DNA of 64,000 nt from Parvibaculaceae bacterium Mf 1.05b.01 (lineage in GTDB: Bacteria; Pseudomonadota; Alphaproteobacteria; Parvibaculales; Parvibaculaceae), in the NCBI GenBank assembly GCA_000509225.1, contig BAOK01000001.1, forward strand, positions 1,178,001 to 1,242,000. The letters run 5' to 3'. Each line of letters starts with the position of its first letter. Position 1 is the stretch's first letter. Below the pieces are notes generated by a model that saw nothing but the letters and a program-made list of their open reading frames with translations, was not told where the DNA came from and searched no databases. Positions 35,459 to 44,175 of the stretch are shown here, in pieces. Position numbers and translations under genes: made by a program.

Positions 35459-36261
35459 CCACCCGCTTTACTGTTCTCGGGTCCGGCTCGTCGGGCGGTG
35501 TGCCACGCATTGGCGGTTATTGGGGTGCCTGTGATCCGGAGGAACCGAAAAACCGCCGCAGCCGCTGCTCACTTCTCGTGGAACGCTGGAAAGATGATCC
35601 GGAGAAAAAGACGACGGTGCTGATCGACACCTCGCCGGATATGCGCGAACAGCTCCTCAAAACTGGTACCCAGTGGATCGATGGGGTGCTCTTCACCCAT
35701 GACCATGCGGACCAGAGCCACGGGATTGATGATCTGCGTATGGTGGCGATCAACCGGATGCAGCGGGTTCAGACCTATATGGATGCCTACACATCAGAAA
35801 CCCTGATGACCCGGTTCGGCTATTGCTTCCAGACCCCGGAGGGATCGAGCTATCCGCCGATCCTGACCGCGCATCTGATCCGTCCGGGCGAGCCTGTGAC
35901 GATTGACGGGGAAGGGGGCACCATCACCGCCCTGCCGTTTGATCAGGACCATGGAGATATCCGCTCGCTCGGGTTTCGGATTGACTCTGTTGCCTATTCC
36001 GCCGATCTGGTGGGATTGCCGGATGAGAGTTTCGCGGCCCTTGAGGGGGTTGAGCACTGGATCGTGGATGCGCTGCGCTACAAGCCGCATCCAAGCCACG
36101 CCCATGTGGAAATGACGCTGTCATGGCTTGAGCGGCTGAAGATCAGCCACGGCGTGCTCACGAACCTCCATGTGGATCTAGATTATGCAACGCTCGCCAA
36201 AGAGCTGCCTCAGGGCCATGAGCCCGCCTATGACGGGCTGACGATTACCGTCGAAGACTAG
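35455..36261 (+). CDS. MBL-fold metallo-hydrolase (PhnP-like)
   Basis: A 268-residue metallo-beta-lactamase-fold phosphoesterase-like protein. It begins [20 protein letters not shown] and carries the zinc motif FTHDHADQSHGIDDLR, then FDQDHGDIRSLGFRIDSVAYSADL and HPSHAHVEMTLSWLERL near the C-terminus. It resembles PhnP-type cyclic phosphodiesterases, though the genomic link to metG-tatD suggests a housekeeping role still undefined. Last gene of the coupled block. Confidence 0.9.
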   Translation: MTTRFTVLGSGSSGGVPRIGGYWGACDPEEPKNRRSRCSLLVERWKDDPEKKTTVLIDTSPDMREQLLKTGTQWIDGVLFTHDHADQSHGIDDLRMVAINRMQRVQTYMDAYTSETLMTRFGYCFQTPEGSSYPPILTAHLIRPGEPVTIDGEGGTITALPFDQDHGDIRSLGFRIDSVAYSADLVGLPDESFAALEGVEHWIVDALRYKPHPSHAHVEMTLSWLERLKISHGVLTNLHVDLDYATLAKELPQGHEPAYDGLTITVED

Positions 36262-36288
36262 GGCTGCACCACAGCACAAGGTGAAGAT

Positions 36289-36735
36289 ATGTCGGTAAGT
36301 ACCTGGAAACGTGAAGGTTTTGAGATTTCGACAGATCTCGCGCGGCTTGATAAAGACTGGCTTCTTGGCGCGCTCGCCAAAACCTATTGGGCCGCTGAAA
36401 ACACCCCCGAAACCCTCTGGAACAGCATTCAGCATGCGCGAGGCTACGGCATTTATGGGCCGGATGGCGCCCAGGTCGGCTTTGCCCGCGCCGTCACAGA
36501 CATGGCGCGGTTTGCCTGGATCTCGGACGTTGTGATTGATGACGCAGCACGGGGCCGAGGCCTTGGCAAATGGCTCATGGAGACCATGGTGAGCGACCCG
36601 GCGCTCAAAACCGTGCACCTATGGACGCTCGCCACGGATGACGCGCACGGCCTTTATGAAAAGTCCGGCTTTGAGGTCACGGCCCAGTCAGCGCTGGCGG
36701 ACCAGTTCATGCACCTCAAACGCCAGAAGATGTGA
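36289..36735 (+). CDS. GNAT family N-acetyltransferase
   Basis: A 148-residue acetyltransferase of the GNAT superfamily. The acetyl-CoA-binding motif is visible as VVIDDAARGRGLGKWLMETMV (Q/RxxGxG/A pattern in RGRGLG), with LWTLATDDAHGLYEKSGFEV at the C-terminal substrate lobe. The acceptor is not predictable. It follows the MBL gene after 27 bases and converges with the CDGSH gene. Confidence 0.85.
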   Translation: MSVSTWKREGFEISTDLARLDKDWLLGALAKTYWAAENTPETLWNSIQHARGYGIYGPDGAQVGFARAVTDMARFAWISDVVIDDAARGRGLGKWLMETMVSDPALKTVHLWTLATDDAHGLYEKSGFEVTAQSALADQFMHLKRQKM

Positions 36736-36745
36736 GCAGCAGCCG

Positions 36746-36985
36746 CTAAAGGTCGTTATGGGCACCGTCGCAGAACGGCTCGCGTTTCGTGTGTTTGCAC
36801 TGGCAGAAGAAAAGCGTGCGGTCTTTCTCAGCCTTGTATTCCATGGGCTCAAAGGACGTGCCCTGGTGAGAGCCGTCGCAGAAGGGCTGGTTGGCTGACT
36901 TCCCGCAGCGGCACCACCAGTAGCTCTCACCGGCTTTGACGTCGACCTGAGCGGGCTCTTTCGCCGCGATTGTGGGTTTGTCCAT
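36746..36985 (-). CDS. tandem CDGSH iron-sulfur domain protein
   Basis: A 79-residue protein with two CDGSH-type [2Fe-2S] motifs: CRCGKSANQPFCDGSH and CQCKHTKREPFCDGAH. Each provides the three cysteines and one histidine that bind the cluster in the mitoNEET-related family. Bacterial tandem members are small soluble redox or cluster-transfer proteins. It is monocistronic by position, convergent with the GNAT gene, and has an upstream gap of 80 bases to the formamidase-like gene. Confidence 0.93.
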   Translation of the reverse strand: MDKPTIAAKEPAQVDVKAGESYWWCRCGKSANQPFCDGSHQGTSFEPMEYKAEKDRTLFFCQCKHTKREPFCDGAHNDL

Positions 36986-37065
36986 AAATGTCTCCTCCAG
37001 ACGTGGAATGTCGCAGATTCCTTAGGTTCTATAGAAGCCTATGCTTGTGGTCAGGTCGACCGAAA

Positions 37066-37953
37066 TCACCTCACATCATCAAAAAGAGACCGAACCGCCA
37101 TGAACAGTGCTGAGGTTGGGGTGGTCAGCTCACGATTGACGGTGACATGGTTGGTGCCGGGCGATGGAATGTCTGCTTTAAAAACATCTGGCCAGCGCTC
37201 GGCGATCAACCTGTTCTGAGCGTGAAAAGCTGCCGTTTCATCACCACCAACGCAGGTAATCAACGGCGCGGATGTCGGAGGCTTCAACCGGGCTGGGCTA
37301 TGGTCGCGGACGTCTTCGTCGCTCAGCTTCAGTATGTCTTTAAGAAAGGGCGCCCGACGAAATGGCTCCAAATCATGGAGGCCACTGATCGACGCTCCAG
37401 CTTTCAATAGTTCTTTAGGCAGGTCTGGCTGCAATTGCGGCAGGTCTGGCTGCAATTGCGGCCAGTCCGTCGCCAACATCATGGCAGTCAGGTGACCGCC
37501 AGCAGAACTCCCAGCAACAACCATCCTTGATGCATCAAACCTCAACAAATGCTGTTGCTGCCAAAGCCAGATGATTGATTGTCTCACATCAGCAACTATG
37601 GTTCCCATTGAAACGTCGGGTACCAGGCGATAGTTCACGACAGCGACTGCCACACCGACGCTGTTCCATGCCTCGCCGACAGTTGAGAAAAACTGCTTGT
37701 CGAAGGCGTGCCAATAGCCGCCGTGGATGTAGATGAGGAGAGGCGCGTTATCGTGTGCCGGGAAGTAGTCCAGCTTCTGCAACGCTGAATCGCCGTAAGC
37801 ATATTCACGATATCCAGAATGCTTGCTGCGAACGAGTGCGTTGGGCGCCACCAGAACCTCAGCAATTGTTTCAATCTCTGGTGCGGCAACGCTGATGTCG
37901 TATTGACGATCCAGCTCAGCTGGATCGTCAAAGTCTATACCTGTTGCGGTCAT
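37066..37953 (-). CDS. alpha/beta hydrolase, kynurenine formamidase-like
   Basis: A 295-residue esterase/amidase of the hormone-sensitive-lipase side of the alpha/beta hydrolases, closest by eye to arylformamidases (kynurenine formamidase). Seen: N-terminal AELDRQYDI like the family, the oxyanion motif IHGGYW at 76-81, nucleophile Ser150 in AGSSAGGH, an Asp in VGGDET and a His in GTNHVTV. A heptapeptide QLQPDLP is duplicated at 166-179 by a 21-bp tandem repeat. Its ATG overlaps the RidA stop (TAATG), so both belong to the DJ-1/RidA operon. Hydrolysis of N-formyl amides is a fair guess, not proven. Confidence 0.83.
   Translation of the reverse strand: MTATGIDFDDPAELDRQYDISVAAPEIETIAEVLVAPNALVRSKHSGYREYAYGDSALQKLDYFPAHDNAPLLIYIHGGYWHAFDKQFFSTVGEAWNSVGVAVAVVNYRLVPDVSMGTIVADVRQSIIWLWQQQHLLRFDASRMVVAGSSAGGHLTAMMLATDWPQLQPDLPQLQPDLPKELLKAGASISGLHDLEPFRRAPFLKDILKLSDEDVRDHSPARLKPPTSAPLITCVGGDETAAFHAQNRLIAERWPDVFKADIPSPGTNHVTVNRELTTPTSALFMAVRSLFDDVR
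37420..37461. repeat. 21-bp in-frame tandem duplication
   Basis: Two identical 21-bp units, 37420-37440 and 37441-37461, each starting CAGGTCTGGCTGC. Because 21 is divisible by three, the hydrolase frame is kept and seven residues (QLQPDLP) are doubled. Perfect identity points to a recent event. Confidence 0.9.
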
Positions 37954-38357
37954 TATGAGCCGCCGTCGATTTTTGCATGTCCTTCGATTTCGATGAGGTA
38001 TTCAGGCGACAGCAAAGCCGTCACGCCGATCAGCGAAATCGCAGGCAGGTATCCGTCTGGGAATGTTGAAAAAATCGCACCTTGGAGCTCGGCAGCGTGC
38101 GCCGCAAACGCTTCCATGTCAGCGACGAATATTGTGAGCTTTGCGACATCTCCTATGCCACCGCCCGCAGTCGTTACGATTGCTTCAATATTTTCAAGCG
38201 CGACTTTCGCCTGAGATGCAATCCCGTCAACAGTTGCTCCGGTTTTTCTGTCAATACCAACCTGACCTGCAATGAACAAGTCGTCACCAGACAGGATGGC
38301 ATTTGCGTGCGTCTGAGGTTGCGCATTTGGGTTGGGTTCAATTCGTTTCATCATCAC
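37953..38357 (-). CDS. ridA: RidA family (YjgF/YER057c) protein
   Basis: A 134-residue RidA-family protein. RidA hydrolyses reactive enamine/imine intermediates, protecting PLP enzymes. The fold pattern is seen in NAILSGDDLFIAGQVGIDRKTGATVDGIASQAKVALENIEAIV and the C-terminal PEYLIEIEGHAKI. The arginine that binds carboxylates in archetypal RidA (in the VARxxLP context) is not evident here: the equivalent segment reads GYLPAISLIGVTAL, so it may belong to a divergent Rid subgroup with another activity. It lies nine bases after the DJ-1-family gene and overlaps the hydrolase start by one base. Confidence 0.85.
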   Translation of the reverse strand: MMMKRIEPNPNAQPQTHANAILSGDDLFIAGQVGIDRKTGATVDGIASQAKVALENIEAIVTTAGGGIGDVAKLTIFVADMEAFAAHAAELQGAIFSTFPDGYLPAISLIGVTALLSPEYLIEIEGHAKIDGGS

Positions 38358-38366
38358 TCGGTTCCT

Positions 38367-39056
38367 TTACACATCAATCTTGGCAGCAGATGCAGAGACA
38401 ACCTCTGCCAGGTCGAGATCACCTGCACCGGCAATGAACATGGCGGTAACGGCCTCTAACGTTTCCGGGCGGGCTTCTTCGGGCGTTCCCGATGAGAAGG
38501 GGGGCTTGGGTGAATATTCCATTCCCAACTGGGATTGACGTGCTGTTTCCTCACCACAAATGTGAGCCATGAGCGCCAGTCCGAAATCGATACCAGCGGT
38601 TACACCACCGCCAGAAGCTCTGTTGCGATCAATGACCCACCGCTCATGCACGACCTCCGCGCCATAGGCAGTCAGCAGGTCACGGGCGAACCAATGCGAC
38701 GTCGCTCGATATCCCTTGAGCAGCCCAGCAGCGCCCAGAAGAATTGACCCGGTACAAACGCTGCCGATCCATTCGGCATGCTCTCCGCGATCAGCCAGGA
38801 ATTTCATCGCCTTCTGATCCGCAAGAAGTTCGAAAGTGGGGGCAGGACCGCCCGGCACAAACAGGATATCCGGCTTGCTCCAAGCTTCATCGAACGTATG
38901 ACTTGCATTCACGCTAAGCGCTGAGTCCGTTGAAACCGATCCTGGCTTTTCCGCAACCAGCTGAAATTCTGCATCGGGCCAGCTGTTCCAGGTCTGTAAC
39001 GGGCCAACCAAATCGAGCAACGTCATGCCCGGATACATAAACATCTGAATTTTCAT
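38367..39056 (-). CDS. DJ-1/PfpI family protein, isonitrile hydratase-like
   Basis: A 229-residue DJ-1/PfpI-fold protein. The nucleophile elbow is GSVCTGSILLGAAGLL with Cys101, and the acid residue Asp15 or Glu-type partner is in MTLLDLVGPL. Both length and the VCTGS-LLGAAGLL segment resemble the isonitrile hydratase of Pseudomonas putida, for which I recall an essential Cys101. The ATG at 39056 has AAGGA about 11 bases upstream; the frame is open to 39098. It is divergent from a GlxA-type regulator with a 70-base shared promoter region. DJ-1 proteins vary widely, so the hydratase role is inference. Confidence 0.83.
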   Translation of the reverse strand: MKIQMFMYPGMTLLDLVGPLQTWNSWPDAEFQLVAEKPGSVSTDSALSVNASHTFDEAWSKPDILFVPGGPAPTFELLADQKAMKFLADRGEHAEWIGSVCTGSILLGAAGLLKGYRATSHWFARDLLTAYGAEVVHERWVIDRNRASGGGVTAGIDFGLALMAHICGEETARQSQLGMEYSPKPPFSSGTPEEARPETLEAVTAMFIAGAGDLDLAEVVSASAAKIDV

Positions 39057-39092
39057 TGTGGAGGTGTTCCTTTCCGTTGTTGGAAGGAACAT

Positions 39093-39131
39093 AGACATGC
39101 AGGGTAATGTCTGTTATGACATATAAATGTC
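39093..39131. promoter_or_regulatory. four ATGTC half-sites in the divergent glxA/DJ-1 region
   Basis: AGACAT-N8-ATGTCT (39093-39112) and GACAT-ATAA-ATGTC (39118-39131) are two perfect inverted repeats sharing the half-site GACAT/ATGTC. The second overlaps the ATG of the GlxA-type gene (39127). An AraC-type regulator encoded by that gene is the natural candidate to bind. Confidence 0.5.
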
Positions 39132-40095
39132 CATTTCTGACAAAACAAAACGGATCATTGTTGTGGGCTTCGAGGGCGTTCAACTCCTCGACCTTGCCGG
39201 ACCATCTGATGTGTTTTCAGTTGCCAACGTGTTTGTGCCCGATGCCTACGAAGTCAATTTCGTGGGCACGCAATCAGATGTCGCCGCTACAAGCGGTCTA
39301 AAGCTGGGTTTGAACCGGCTTCCAAGGATCACAATGTCCGATACAATTTTGGTGCCTGGCGGGCCTGCGAAAGCAGTCCGAGCCGCAATGAATGATCAGG
39401 TGCTGATGAAGTGGCTTCGACGTTCAGCAGAAAACGCAGGGCGTGTTGCGTCTGTTTGCTCGGGGGCATTTGTACTTGCCGAACTTGGCTTACTAGACGG
39501 GAAGCGGGCGGTGACACATTGGTCGGCGACCAAGCAGCTCGCCAAAGAACGCGCCAACGCACGGATTGAAGAAGAGGCAATCTTTGTCGAGGACGGCAAG
39601 ATCTGGACGTCCGCTGGGGTTACGACAGGCATTGATATGGCGCTGGCACTTGTAGCCCGTGACCTGGGGGATGCTGTCGCGCTCAGGGTGGCGCGCAGCT
39701 TGGTGGTTCATCTCATGCGGTCAGGAAACCAATCACAATTCTCTGAGCCACTATCATTGCAGCTCACCGCAGGACCTGATCTCAGCAAACTCATCCCATG
39801 GCTTGAAAACCGGATTGACCAGCCAACAAGCGTGCAGGACATGGCGTCAAAGGTTGGGCTGAGTGAGCGTCAATTTCATCGCAAGTGCGTCGCGCAGTTT
39901 GCGCTGACACCAGCCAAGCTGCTTTTAGAGCTCAGACTCGATCGGGCGCGACACTTACTGCGGGACCCGGACGCCCGCATTTCAACGCTCCATACAAAAT
40001 GCGGTTTTGAGAGCGCGGCTGCGCTCTCGAAAGCATTCAAGAAGCAGTTCGCTGTGTCTCCGAAGGCATACCGGACACACTGGGTTAGCCGGTAG
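39127..40095 (+). CDS. GlxA family transcriptional regulator (DJ-1-like domain plus AraC DNA-binding domain)
   Basis: A 322-residue regulator. Residues about 8-180 form a DJ-1/PfpI-like domain (GFEGVQLLDLAGPSDVF, then VASVCSGAFVLAELGLLDGKRAVTHW with Cys111 at the elbow), and about 215-320 carry the two helix-turn-helices of AraC proteins (VQDMASKVGLSERQFHRKCVAQF and ISTLHTKCGFESAAALSKAFKKQFAVSPKAYR). Such regulators sense small nitrogenous compounds and commonly control a divergent operon. Here the divergent operon encodes a DJ-1-fold enzyme related to its own sensor domain. Confidence 0.9.
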   Translation: MSISDKTKRIIVVGFEGVQLLDLAGPSDVFSVANVFVPDAYEVNFVGTQSDVAATSGLKLGLNRLPRITMSDTILVPGGPAKAVRAAMNDQVLMKWLRRSAENAGRVASVCSGAFVLAELGLLDGKRAVTHWSATKQLAKERANARIEEEAIFVEDGKIWTSAGVTTGIDMALALVARDLGDAVALRVARSLVVHLMRSGNQSQFSEPLSLQLTAGPDLSKLIPWLENRIDQPTSVQDMASKVGLSERQFHRKCVAQFALTPAKLLLELRLDRARHLLRDPDARISTLHTKCGFESAAALSKAFKKQFAVSPKAYRTHWVSR

Positions 40096-40146
40096 CAAGC
40101 GGGAAAAGCCCCAGAGTTCCAGCATTTACAGACAATACTTTTTTAC

Positions 40147-40162
40147 CATAATATAAATTATG
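40147..40162. promoter_or_regulatory. inverted repeat CATAAT-ATAA-ATTATG
   Basis: A perfect 6-4-6 inverted repeat with the same ATAA centre as the element at 39118-39131. It lies 52 bases after the GlxA-type stop codon and about 90 bases before the start of the DUF6817-like gene, within an AT-rich likely promoter. Confidence 0.35.
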
Positions 40163-40248
40163 CGCCTTTTTGATATCTTGTAGCGCGTGATACGGACGCT
40201 CAGAACTGCTACTCCCTTCGTCGGTTTCAACTATCGGCGAGTCCTCCA

Positions 40249-40794
40249 ATGCGATCTTACGACGATAAGTTCCAACGTCTGTCTGACCTTGGTGCCGGCG
40301 ACTTTGCCCATCTGAACGGTTCCTTGGAGGAGCATTTTGTCGGCGTCTACGACCTCCTCGTTGAATGGAACGCGGCGCGACCTCTTCAGGATGCCGGGCT
40401 GTTTCACGCAGCTTACGGCACCAGCGGCTTTACTGATCAGATGGTATCACTCGACCAGAGGCATCTGATTGCCGAGATTATCGGTGAGGAAGCCGAGGCG
40501 ATTGTTTATCTCTACTGTTCCTGCGACCGGGACGTCTTTTGGCCCCGGATTGGCGTGGCAGAGCCCCTGCTCTTCAAAGACCGGTTTTCCGATACAGAAC
40601 TTGAACCGTCACAGCAGCAATTACGTGAATTTTGCGAACTGACAGCCGCCAACGAGCTTCAACTCGCCGCCGCAGATCCCAGTTTTGCCGACCAATATCG
40701 CGCGGAATTCATTGATGTCTTTGCTCGTATGGCCCCCTGGCTCACACTCCAGGCGACGGCCTATTCGCGATCTGTCCTTAGGAGCACTGGCTGA
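40249..40794 (+). CDS. DUF6817-like hypothetical protein
   Basis: A 181-residue soluble protein that appears to belong to the DUF6817 family: it shows HLNGSLEEHFVGVYDLLVEWNAARPLQDAGLFHAAYGTSGF, a His-rich helical arrangement recalling HD-like metal sites (H-x4-HxxG and FHxxYGT), followed by LIAEIIGEEAEAIVYLYCSCDR. Function is unknown. The ribosome site of the ATG at 40249 is weak. It is followed by a GST gene on the same strand after 79 bases. Confidence 0.65.
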   Translation: MRSYDDKFQRLSDLGAGDFAHLNGSLEEHFVGVYDLLVEWNAARPLQDAGLFHAAYGTSGFTDQMVSLDQRHLIAEIIGEEAEAIVYLYCSCDRDVFWPRIGVAEPLLFKDRFSDTELEPSQQQLREFCELTAANELQLAAADPSFADQYRAEFIDVFARMAPWLTLQATAYSRSVLRSTG

Positions 40795-40873
40795 TCGAAA
40801 CACTTGCGCTGGCCCCTCTCCTCAGACAGTGTTTGGCAAACGCATTCCAAAAAAGAACTTCAGGGGGGTTCCC

Positions 40874-41482
40874 ATGCTCAAACTTCATTTCGCACCGAAT
40901 TCGCGCGCGCAGCGCTCACTCTGGCTGCTGGAGGAGCTGGGTCTTCCGTATGAGTTGAACCGCATGGAGTTCAACCCGAAAGACCTGAAGTCAGATGAGC
41001 ACAAAGCGCGCCATCCCCTTGGCCGCATTCCGGTTTTGGACGATGGTGACGTCTCCATCTTCGAGAGCGGCGCGATTGCCGAATATATTCTTGAGCGGCA
41101 CAAGAATGGCGGTCTGAAGCCCGCCGTCGACGACCCGCTCTACCCGGAATATCTGCAATGGTTCCACTATTGCGAAGGCATGGTGATGCCGCCAGTGAAC
41201 ACGATCGTGGTGCACACCCTGCTCCTGCCGCCAGAGCGGCAGGACGAAACCGTGCGCGGCCAGGCCCAGCGCCTGCTTACCCGCGCCCTCGCCCCGGTCA
41301 ACGAAGCCATGGAAGGTCGCGAGTATATTCTCGGCGACTTCTCCGCGGTTGATACGATGCTCGGCCACGCCATCTACATGTCCAACCGCCTAGGCTGCGT
41401 CACCGACGAGATGACGAACCTCAAAGCCTATGTTTCGCGACTGGAAACCCGCCCCGCGTTTCAGAAAGCCATGTCGGCGTAA
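40874..41482 (+). CDS. glutathione S-transferase
   Basis: A 202-residue glutathione transferase. The thioredoxin-like half has MLKLHFAPNSRAQRSLWLLEELGLPYEL (Ser/Asn near residue 9-10), the cis-proline HPLGRIPVLDDG, and the glutathione-binding IFESGAIAEYILE. The helical half includes LGDFSAVDTMLGHAIYMSNR, the N-capping motif. ATG at 40874 has AGGGGGG upstream. It is only distantly similar to the GST at 11519. Substrate unknown. Confidence 0.9.
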   Translation: MLKLHFAPNSRAQRSLWLLEELGLPYELNRMEFNPKDLKSDEHKARHPLGRIPVLDDGDVSIFESGAIAEYILERHKNGGLKPAVDDPLYPEYLQWFHYCEGMVMPPVNTIVVHTLLLPPERQDETVRGQAQRLLTRALAPVNEAMEGREYILGDFSAVDTMLGHAIYMSNRLGCVTDEMTNLKAYVSRLETRPAFQKAMSA

Positions 41483-42582: not shown

Positions 42583-44175
42583 TTAAGACACAAGCAATCC
42601 GCTTCGGGCCGCATGTCCAAGGACGCGCATGGTCGTTGCTTTGGCGCGCGCTTCTGGCGTCCCCTCGATCGCGGCGAGTGTGACCTCGCCTTTGGCGACC
42701 GCCGTCGCAAGTTCGTCAGCGATCTGACCCACAGTCTGCGTCCCATCCAGCCGACCGAGGATGAAGCGCGCGGTATTGTCGACGGCAATGGAATGCGGCA
42801 GCAGGCTCGCCAGATGAGACGCACCGCTACGTGCCTGCATGAGAGCCAGCGGCGCAAGAACGGGACGTTCTGACAACCAGGGGATCGCTCTGCTCTCGGC
42901 CTGGTGGGCGACGATGGCGCCTGCAGGCAGAAGTTTCGCTGTGACAGCAAGTAGAATCTTCGACACCTCGGCATGGTCAGCGGGCTGGATGCCGGTCGGT
43001 TTCAGTGCCGTGACAACGTGGTCGACCAGACGATCGCCCCGCACGGGGAAGTATCTATGCCGCTCCATCAGCGCAAGCGCTACGATTTCAATCGGGTTCG
43101 TCGTCCGATAGGTCAGCGGCCCGACGAAAGCCACCTGCGCGCCCGAAAGCAGCGCCTTGTCCGATAGAGATTTGTCGCCGCGGGTGAGTTCGCTGGTAAA
43201 GCAGAGTGAATTGAATGCCGTGCTCAACTCAAACTCTTCTTTCGACCGTTCTGCATGCACCAGGAGAACGTGGCGCCGTCTTATGTTCGTATATTGGTCA
43301 ACCAAGCCAAACAGGTCAGCCGTGCTGAGCGGAGAACTATCGGCAGGACGCTTCGACGTTGGTATCCGACTAAGATTGGACTTTGCGGGATCAAGATCAC
43401 CGATAGGCTTCAGTTTTGCCGCGTCTGCCATTGCTAAAAATGCCGCAATGGAATGAGATTGATGTTGGGGGTTCAAAAGGTCCCTATAGACCTCCGCATC
43501 CGACGCGCGCGCCAAGCGAACGAGCTCGGCCAGGAGCGGGCGTTGGTCGTCTGCCTTTTCAGCAGACATTGTTTTTGCGAGATTCGTTACACGGGTCCGG
43601 ACTGTGTTTACCTGCTCTCTTAGATCGGCAGTTCGGTCCAGGTCTGCGCAGAAACGGGCTCTGAGACCTTCAATCAGATCCCAACCGGGACTGACATCAA
43701 CGCCGATGCAGGCAACGCCGTTCTCGCTCAGATGCTTCTTTACCAGCACCAGGAGGGCCATGCGCTCCGCTGCTGTCGCCGTTGAGAAAACGTCTGCCGC
43801 AGTGACGAAATCAAACATGCCCAGACCGTCGCTCTCGAAATTGGCGAGATTGATGCCGGTCGAGGCGAGGTTTTGCACGCCCACCTTTTGCGCAAGGTCC
43901 GCACCTTCCGAACTGGGAGTGGTCGATGCAGCGGTGAACATGACTTGCGGACAGGAGGTGGCATGGGCTGCAAGGTTGATGGCTGGTCGGTTGGCAACGT
44001 CTAGATAGCTCGCCCCTTCAAGAGCCGGTGCGCCGTAGCCTTCGACAAGAGACCGTGCAGCCAGTCTGGAAGGCGACAGGTCGGGCAGCACTTTTTGAGG
44101 ACCCGCATCAAGATCCGCCGCGCGCAGAGGCGTGGCGTAGCTTTGCTTATCTGTGGCGAACGTCGTCACGTTCAT
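42583..44175 (-). CDS. PKMT-like protein with degenerate methyltransferase domain
   Basis: A 530-residue protein with the plan of rickettsial-type protein lysine methyltransferases: N-terminal Rossmann-like domain, a methyltransferase regulatory domain and a C-terminal winged-helix/PqqD-like end. The post-Rossmann part is recognisable (FDFVTAADVFSTATAAERMALLVLVKKHLSENGVACIGVDVSPGW, PGW at 163-165), as is the regulatory domain at 228-262 (AEVYRDLLNPQHQSHSIAAFLAMADAAKLKPIGD). Motif I, normally a glycine-rich DxGxGxG, reads YLDVANRPAINLAA at 57-70 with no glycines, so SAM binding is doubtful. Residues about 460-500 (FILGRLDGTQTVGQIADEL) look PqqD-like. It may be a pseudoenzyme or regulator. Convergent with the MBL gene. 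Confidence 0.7.
   Translation of the reverse strand: MNVTTFATDKQSYATPLRAADLDAGPQKVLPDLSPSRLAARSLVEGYGAPALEGASYLDVANRPAINLAAHATSCPQVMFTAASTTPSSEGADLAQKVGVQNLASTGINLANFESDGLGMFDFVTAADVFSTATAAERMALLVLVKKHLSENGVACIGVDVSPGWDLIEGLRARFCADLDRTADLREQVNTVRTRVTNLAKTMSAEKADDQRPLLAELVRLARASDAEVYRDLLNPQHQSHSIAAFLAMADAAKLKPIGDLDPAKSNLSRIPTSKRPADSSPLSTADLFGLVDQYTNIRRRHVLLVHAERSKEEFELSTAFNSLCFTSELTRGDKSLSDKALLSGAQVAFVGPLTYRTTNPIEIVALALMERHRYFPVRGDRLVDHVVTALKPTGIQPADHAEVSKILLAVTAKLLPAGAIVAHQAESRAIPWLSERPVLAPLALMQARSGASHLASLLPHSIAVDNTARFILGRLDGTQTVGQIADELATAVAKGEVTLAAIEGTPEARAKATTMRVLGHAARSGLLVS

What the first reader, a model, noticed from the sequence alone, without database searches (positions are those of the whole stretch)
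37066..40095. Candidate isonitrile/N-formamide detoxification module under a GlxA-type regulator
Seen: one operon (DJ-1/PfpI protein, RidA, alpha/beta hydrolase with 1-9 base gaps or overlaps) divergent from a GlxA-type AraC regulator. The DJ-1 protein matches isonitrile hydratase in length and in the VCTGS elbow with Cys101. Isonitrile hydratase makes N-substituted formamides; the hydrolase resembles kynurenine formamidase, which hydrolyses N-formyl amides to amine plus formate; RidA handles enamine/imine products. The three steps form a plausible chain isonitrile to formamide to amine. The regulator's sensor domain shares the DJ-1 fold with the enzyme it would control. The combination as one regulated operon is not known to me.
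Basis: partly seen in the sequence, partly recalled or inferred. Interest (0 to 1): 0.6.

Follow-up and report, generated by a model that had tools for sequence, protein, structure and literature searches.

The report
Acquired isonitrile-hydratase gene cassette with regulator
A four-gene block that looks as if this bacterium gained it as one unit carries a likely isonitrile-hydrating enzyme, a formamidase-like hydrolase, a small Rid-family protein and their probable switch, which makes a short detoxification pathway plausible but not proven.

Summary
Observation confirmed: a DJ-1 protein, a Rid protein and an alpha/beta hydrolase form a tight minus-strand operon divergent from a GlxA/FtrA-type regulator. 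The DJ-1 protein passes each residue test against solved isocyanide hydratase (Asp17, Cys101, Thr102, Gly150, IJ linker). The hydrolase groups with kynurenine formamidase, 2pbl and 'Lipase 1' above other esterases; its substrate is open. New finding: a same-genus genome has the empty site. Exactly 37061-40141, these four genes, replaces 17 bases there, and third-position GC is lower than in flanking genes, so the unit was probably acquired whole. No other genome examined has all three genes together, but pieces recur: GlxA divergent from InhA in 11 of 37 other class-sample genomes, InhA directly followed by a Rid gene without the Arg in one, and hydrolase near Rid in three loci. Relatives of Rid and hydrolase often lie in kynurenine/2-aminobenzoate-type clusters, the main rival. 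Interpretation partly supported; new variant of a known kind.

The parts
37061..40141 (.). acquired four-gene cassette; the same-genus genome G001 has 17 bases here
   Evidence: flanks 36201-37060 and 40142-41000 align at 81.9% each to neighbouring stretches of L215; gene order
38367..39056 (-). DJ-1/PfpI protein, isonitrile (isocyanide) hydratase type, 229 aa
   Evidence: 42% identity to ICH (3non) over 195 columns; D15, C101, T102, G150 at ICH positions 17, 101, 102, 150; proline-rich IJ linker
37953..38357 (-). Rid-family protein (PF01042) without the catalytic Arg; start GTG 38357 or ATG 38354/38351
37066..37953 (-). alpha/beta hydrolase (BD-FAE), kynurenine-formamidase-like group, 295 aa; HGGYW motif, Ser150, His269
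39127..40095 (+). GlxA/FtrA-type regulator: DJ-1/PfpI sensor plus AraC-type HTH, 322 aa; sensor keeps Asp22, Cys111, Ser112
39065..39091 (.). 8-bp perfect inverted repeat TGTTCCTT-N11-AAGGAACA between the divergent starts; possible operator, one arm overlaps the likely DJ-1 ribosome-binding site
   Evidence: 93 of 2000 shuffles of the 101-base stretch also hold such a repeat, so weak

Best explanation
A self-contained, regulated cassette gained as one unit. The DJ-1 enzyme probably adds water to an isonitrile (R-NC) through a Cys101 thioimidate, with the Asp as acid/base, giving an N-substituted formamide. The co-translated kynurenine-formamidase-like serine hydrolase probably cleaves that formamide (or a related amide or ester) to amine and formate. 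The Rid protein is not an imine deaminase of the RidA type; it is a helper of unknown chemistry. The divergent GlxA/FtrA-type regulator, whose sensor is an InhA relative, probably switches the operon on in response to the substrate. Shown here: operon structure, family memberships, active-site residues, presence as one unit against an empty site in a sister genome. Inferred: direction of the change (gain), substrate, the deformylation step, regulation.
For: Hydratase residues and IJ linker kept. Divergent GlxA-InhA pairs occur in 11 of the 37 other class-sample genomes examined (of 38 others with a match), plus two on one Cupriavidus plasmid. In G237 InhA is followed on the same strand, after 7 bases between its reading frame and the first Rid start, by a Rid gene that also lacks the Arg. 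The hydrolase model (pLDDT 91.5) gives Z 35.4 to 9n8r, 33.7 to 2pbl and 28.9-29.2 to kynurenine formamidase, against at most 25.5 for the next entries. A relative overlaps kynA in a kynU-kynA-hydrolase operon, yet the window's genome shows no tryptophan 2,3-dioxygenase (the control rings in 2 of 14 genomes), so another N-formyl substrate would be needed. The four genes fill exactly one insertion; GC3 is 0.49-0.58 against 0.62-0.75 in seven flanking genes.
Against: No second example of the three-gene set was found. The nearest solved relative of the hydrolase is named a lipase and the best NCBIfam model is a hormone-sensitive lipase (141.6 bits, cut-off 320). The Rid protein does not fit the proposed chain. 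The nearest solved DJ-1 relative, 3ewn, bears no function in these results. No member of this hydrolase group lies beside InhA in 41 other genomes or plasmids looked at. Isonitrile as the substrate is untested; the search for an isonitrile synthase (PF05141) found none but its control was silent.
Confidence: 0.4

Rival explanations
1. Aromatic-amine module: the hydrolase and the Rid protein come from kynurenine / 2-aminobenzoate-type catabolism and act together on an N-formyl or N-acyl aromatic amine; the DJ-1 enzyme supplies or protects that pathway and its natural substrate is not an isonitrile.
For: Rid relatives: 4 of the 6 plasmid contexts looked at (of 15 rows listed, 52 records matched) have kynureninase plus tryptophan 2,3-dioxygenase genes, or a CoA ligase plus thioesterase. 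Hydrolase relatives L101 and L102 have a Rid gene just upstream (L101) or 0.9 kb upstream (L102) and an AMP-binding ligase before it. Paracoccus yeei has hydrolase, TRAP transporter and Rid on one strand. The residue change at the Arg position is shared in part: Ile in the window, Met in 5 of 6 relatives aligned.
Against: Tryptophan 2,3-dioxygenase is not found in the genome and no ligase, oxygenase or transporter lies in the cassette; the DJ-1 protein is plainly hydratase-like.
Confidence: 0.27
2. Ordinary GlxA-InhA pair with two passengers: the regulator controls the hydratase, and a general esterase and a Rid protein merely joined the transcript without a pathway.
For: The GlxA-InhA pair is common and stands without this hydrolase or a Rid gene in the 11 other class-sample pairs; hydrolase relatives have varied neighbours.
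Against: Start/stop overlap between Rid and hydrolase, and presence as exactly these four genes against an empty site; an InhA-Rid pair in G237.
Confidence: 0.23
3. The DJ-1 protein is a DJ-1-type stress protein (glyoxalase/deglycase-like) and the operon deals with reactive carbonyls.
For: DJ-1 superfamily; NCBIfam lists DJ-1 family glyoxalase III and PfpI deglycase models far under cut-off.
Against: Asp at ICH position 17, CTGS elbow and IJ linker; best PDB matches at 1e-44 to 1e-51 are ICH entries and 3ewn, DJ-1 itself only about 1e-4.
Confidence: 0.06

Closest known systems
Isocyanide (isonitrile) hydratase InhA/ICH of Pseudomonas (3non, 6ni4 and others)
   Same: DJ-1 domain, D17/C101/T102/G150 equivalents, proline-rich IJ linker
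   Different: 42% identity; in an operon with a hydrolase and a Rid protein; activity untested
3ewn, ThiJ/PfpI family protein (source organism recalled as Pseudomonas syringae)
   Same: best phmmer match, E 4e-51
   Different: CSGS elbow and Ala at the G150 position; no function in the molecule name
Kynurenine formamidase, alpha/beta hydrolase type (4e11, 4e14, 4e15, Drosophila)
   Same: HGGYW motif, serine elbow, fold Z about 29
   Different: 19-21% identity; no tryptophan 2,3-dioxygenase found in the genome
Lipase 1 of Pseudomonas chlororaphis PA23 (9n8r)
   Same: nearest fold, Z 35.4, 28% identity
   Different: substrate of the window protein unknown
Rid proteins of kynurenine/2-aminobenzoate-type clusters (Thalassospira, Arthrobacter pAL1)
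   Same: Arg replaced (by Met), Glu120 kept
   Different: 33% identity; other partners
GlxA/FtrA-type AraC regulators divergent from inhA
   Same: sensor plus HTH; divergent from an InhA gene in 11 other class-sample genomes
   Different: of the pairs examined, only here with hydrolase and Rid

Membership tests
Isocyanide hydratase (InhA/ICH) | DJ-1/PfpI domain | tested here: met
   PF01965 E 1.7e-22
Isocyanide hydratase (InhA/ICH) | nucleophile Cys101 and essential Asp17 (roles from passages of PMC10971408) | tested here: met
   C101 and D15 align to them
Isocyanide hydratase (InhA/ICH) | Thr102 (importance recalled, not read) and Gly150 | tested here: met
Isocyanide hydratase (InhA/ICH) | proline-rich IJ linker that marks ICH homologs (PMC10971408) | tested here: met
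   alignment: EYSPKPPFSSGTPEEA against EYAPAPPFNAGSPDTA; that this stretch is the IJ linker is my reading of the paper's description
Isocyanide hydratase (InhA/ICH) | hydration of isocyanides to N-formamides | not testable with these tools
   needs enzyme assay
Isocyanide hydratase (InhA/ICH) | structure superposes on ICH | tested here: inconclusive
   single-sequence model failed, pLDDT 37; not searched
Kynurenine formamidase, alpha/beta hydrolase type | alpha/beta fold with HGGYW, serine elbow and catalytic His | tested here: met
   H77-W81, S150, H269 invariant in all 15 rows
Kynurenine formamidase, alpha/beta hydrolase type | works in tryptophan catabolism with tryptophan 2,3-dioxygenase | tested here: not met
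   no PF03301 match in the genome, control rings in 2 of 14
Kynurenine formamidase, alpha/beta hydrolase type | hydrolysis of an N-formyl amide | not testable with these tools
   needs enzyme assay
RidA / Rid1-Rid3 imine deaminases | PF01042 domain | tested here: met
RidA / Rid1-Rid3 imine deaminases | conserved Arg105 (PMC4433059) | tested here: not met
   Ile in LPAISL
GlxA/FtrA-type AraC regulator | DJ-1/PfpI sensor fused to AraC-type HTH | tested here: met
GlxA/FtrA-type AraC regulator | FtrA equivalog score | tested here: not met
   220.3 bits, cut-off 425
N-substituted formamide deformylase NfdA | amidohydrolase-superfamily enzyme (recalled) | tested here: not met
   the window hydrolase matches alpha/beta hydrolase families only

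The most novel reading that the evidence does not exclude
A mobile, complete isonitrile-utilisation cassette: a hydratase and a new alpha/beta-fold formamide deformylase take an isonitrile to amine and formate, a Rid protein without the catalytic Arg takes part in this chemistry (as the InhA-Rid pair of G237 hints), and the regulator is a hydratase turned sensor that keeps the Asp and Cys and has Ala at the position where G150A slows ICH about sixfold, so that it could hold the covalent thioimidate as its signal.
Probability: 0.16. Interest if true: 0.66.

Novelty: new variant of a known kind. Interest (0 to 1): 0.4.

Why it matters
Isonitrile hydratase is a model enzyme for protein dynamics, yet its biological setting is only presumed to be defence against isonitrile natural products (PMC10971408, PMC10792529, passages read). 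A gained cassette that pairs it with a formamidase-like hydrolase and its own regulator gives a direct genetic test of that role and offers an alpha/beta hydrolase candidate for the deformylation step. If the sensor is a slowed hydratase, it would be a clear case of an enzyme turned covalent sensor.

Tried and rejected
Considered and set aside. (1) RidA as imine deaminase: the Arg is missing. (2) A general lipase as the hydrolase: the fold comparison puts it with 9n8r, 2pbl and kynurenine formamidase, 3.4 Z units or more above the next entries, although 9n8r itself is called a lipase. (3) Ala at ICH position 150 as a mark of the sensor: not specific, since 29 of 59 enzyme rows with D/C/T also have it. 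(4) Asp17 retention as a mark of linkage: 14 of 14 InhA-divergent and 19 of 19 DJ-1-adjacent regulators keep it, but so do 8 of 17 others, and the sets were not drawn evenly, so it may be a clade property. (5) Operator: the 8-bp dyad appears in 93 of 2000 shuffles. (6) Sigma-70 promoter scan: 2 found against 1.7 expected, none between the divergent starts. (7) Hydrolase tree: the window protein is a long branch with unresolved place. (8) Single-sequence model of the DJ-1 protein failed and was not searched. (9) My first Rid profiles were insensitive: they missed the annotated P. yeei Rid protein, and one built with it as a seed still found only three. A profile from alignment A2, which finds three Rid genes outside its seeds, replaced them and turned up the InhA-Rid pair in G237 that I had missed; because of it and the other recurring pieces I raised the best explanation from 0.37 to 0.40 and lowered the passenger rival from 0.26 to 0.23. 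(10) Isonitrile synthase search PF05141: control silent, uninformative. (11) Literature on a regulator of inhA or such an operon: searches gave one listing each, not on the subject by title and abstract start; searches (20 listed; 25 listed of 42,961; 2 listed) showed none by title and abstract start. Not seen in this library is not the same as not in print.

Limits of the surveys. Class sample: 385 genomes drawn evenly; one genome with an InhA match, G261, was never fetched. Flanks of fetched loci ran from about 1.5 to 6 kb. One search covered 70 loci: those of the 37 other class-sample genomes, G595 and three plasmids. It found a Rid gene beside InhA in 1 of these 41 (G237); G367 has one about 5.9 kb away. 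Hydrolase-profile matches near InhA were only of the separate hormone-sensitive-lipase type: G002 and G003, where it follows the genus paralogue, and G393, 2.6 kb away. The lists were cut at low scores. The genome-contig scan used six short hydrolase patterns and gave 22 loci. Hydrolase near Rid was seen in L099, L101 and L102 only, of some 45 hydrolase loci searched with the insensitive profiles.
Full report
What is there. The window holds a minus-strand operon: DJ-1 protein (38367-39056), Rid protein (37953-38357) and alpha/beta hydrolase (37066-37953). It is divergent, 70 bases between start codons, from a regulator with a DJ-1-type sensor and an AraC-type HTH (39127-40095). The DJ-1 stop lies 9 bases from the first Rid start codon, and the Rid stop and hydrolase start share one base. 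The longer DJ-1 frame from 39098 lacks a ribosome-binding site by my reading; the ATG at 39056 gives a start in line with ICH.

The unit was probably gained whole. Same-genus genome G001 has the same neighbours but not the cassette: on one side tatD, a metallo-hydrolase, a GNAT gene and a short frame near 36740-36990; on the other the 40249 gene, a GST, a second metallo-hydrolase and the gene at 42583-44175. GNAT, GST and DUF6817 (40249) are by Pfam; the other names are my reading, and the short frame matched no Pfam family. Window 36201-37060 and 40142-41000 align at 81.9% each to that genome, where 17 bases separate the two matches. So 37061-40141 holds exactly the four genes. Loss in G001 is less likely: none of six same-genus genomes has the hydrolase at E 1e-20; their best DJ-1 matches, at most 45% identical, are orthologues of the paralogue; and of 40 genomes of the order only its own has a DJ-1 match at E 1e-55. 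Third-position GC is 0.57 (hydrolase), 0.49 (Rid), 0.56 (DJ-1) and 0.58 (regulator), against 0.62-0.75 for seven flanking genes. In the other same-genus genomes read, the cassette is likewise not at the site, but one side is rearranged or cut by a contig end.

DJ-1 protein. Best solved relatives are 3ewn (E 4e-51) and the ICH/InhA entries (E 1e-45), with DJ-1 itself at about 1e-4. After correcting chain numbering by three residues, which I first got wrong, the window protein has Asp15, Cys101, Thr102 and Gly150 at ICH positions 17, 101, 102 and 150, and the proline-rich linker. Asp17 and Cys101 are acid/base and nucleophile, G150A and G150T slow ICH about sixfold, and the IJ linker is called distinctive of ICH homologs (PMC10971408, passages). 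Of 95 DJ-1-type rows aligned, 59 have D/C/T at 17/101/102, the window's among them. Closest homologues found: a Phyllobacterium plasmid protein (54% by tblastn) and 50% in G126 and G595. A paralogue at G000:C2:2342247 (44%) is conserved in the genus (76-96% in six rows).

Rid protein. PF01042, but Ile stands where the YjgF protein 1qu9 has the Arg. PMC4433059 (abstract and passages) states that RidA and Rid1-Rid3 have this Arg and that Rid4-Rid7 lack it and appear not to hydrolyse imines. Of six relatives aligned, five have Met there; the sixth, P. yeei, aligns Ala with an Arg one column on. Six plasmid contexts were read, of 15 rows listed and 52 records matched: Thalassospira and Sagittula with kynureninase, tryptophan 2,3-dioxygenase, AMP-binding protein and thioesterase; Arthrobacter pAL1 with a salicylyl-CoA 5-hydroxylase-type enzyme, AMP-binding protein and thioesterase; Marinovum with ligase, thioesterase and thiolase; Aminobacter with AMP-binding protein and flavin oxidoreductase; Natronococcus with oxidoreductases.

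Hydrolase. BD-FAE/Abhydrolase_3 by Pfam; best NCBIfam model a hormone-sensitive lipase far under its cut-off. The model (pLDDT 91.5) matches 9n8r (Z 35.4), 2pbl (33.7) and Drosophila kynurenine formamidase (28.9-29.2); the next entry is at 25.5. A Deinococcus relative (37.5%) overlaps kynA in a kynU-kynA-hydrolase operon, and its own PDB matches at E 1e-8 are the same three. Betaproteobacterial relatives L101 and L102 (41-42%) have a Rid gene upstream, adjoining in L101 and 0.9 kb off in L102, after an AMP-binding ligase. Other relatives have varied neighbours. The genome shows no tryptophan 2,3-dioxygenase, so the usual tryptophan route is not the role. The serine elbow is GSSAGGH, with Ser149 where 13 of 14 relatives have His.

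Regulator and linkage. The sensor's best solved relatives are InhA entries (E 5e-23); it keeps Asp22, Cys111 and Ser112, with Ala at the G150 position. Of 39 class-sample genomes with an InhA match at E 1e-45 (385 searched), 38 were looked at: the window's own and 11 others have a GlxA-type regulator divergent from InhA; two more pairs lie on one Cupriavidus plasmid. In 70 loci from 37 other class-sample genomes, G595 and three plasmids, a sensitive Rid profile found one Rid gene beside InhA: in G237 it follows InhA on the same strand and also lacks the Arg (Thr there, 25% identity to the window's). That locus has no regulator of this type within 900 bases. No hydrolase of the window's group was found beside InhA. 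So the recurrent core is regulator plus hydratase; Rid joins it at least once more; the hydrolase is particular to this cassette, though it goes with Rid elsewhere.

Reading. I take it as an inducible module for an isonitrile or close electrophile, with the hydrolase acting on the formamide. The first step rests on strong residue evidence, the second on fold and context, the Rid step on linkage alone. The main rival is an aromatic-amine module, because relatives of both added genes are found in kynurenine and 2-aminobenzoate-type clusters. A paper on a marine sponge and its microbiome reports daytime up-regulation of genes related to isonitrile hydratase in Alphaproteobacteria (PMC12879404, passages), a setting where such substrates may be met and nothing more.

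Noticed in passing
L225-L240 (16 same-family regions chosen because they hold GlxA plus DJ-1 genes) and L163 (G000:C2:2342247): In each of the 16, a GlxA-type regulator and one or two DJ-1/InhA-like genes are followed on the same strand, 0.1-2.2 kb on, by an Abhydrolase_3 hydrolase 65-71% identical to one in the window's genome; an enoyl-CoA hydratase lies nearby (Pfam in L225). In the window's genome and 4 of 6 other genus members the same hydrolase follows the paralogous hydratase: a second, unrelated hydratase-hydrolase neighbourhood.
   Followed up: partly
L018-L027: One of the paired DJ-1 genes in these clusters has Asn instead of Thr at ICH position 102 while keeping Asp17 and Cys101 (10 rows), a natural variant of the hydratase active site.
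   Followed up: no
window 37418-37459: Perfect 21-base tandem duplication inside the hydrolase gene, seen as a seven-residue insert absent from the 14 relatives aligned.
   Followed up: partly
G000:C2:316237-317606 (L004, L005, L164): A GlxA-type regulator stands divergent from a second DJ-1-domain protein (364-residue frame, DJ-1 domain only by Pfam); the same pair is seen in four other genus members (L168, L169, L170, L176).
   Followed up: partly
L099 (Paracoccus yeei plasmid): A hydrolase of this family, a TRAP transporter, a Rid protein and a pyridoxamine-5'-phosphate-oxidase-family protein on one strand, near insertion sequences: a possible uptake-plus-hydrolysis operon.
   Followed up: no
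L197 3001-4087 (G237): Two-gene InhA-Rid operon in another family of the class, with a Rid protein that also lacks the catalytic Arg.
   Followed up: partly
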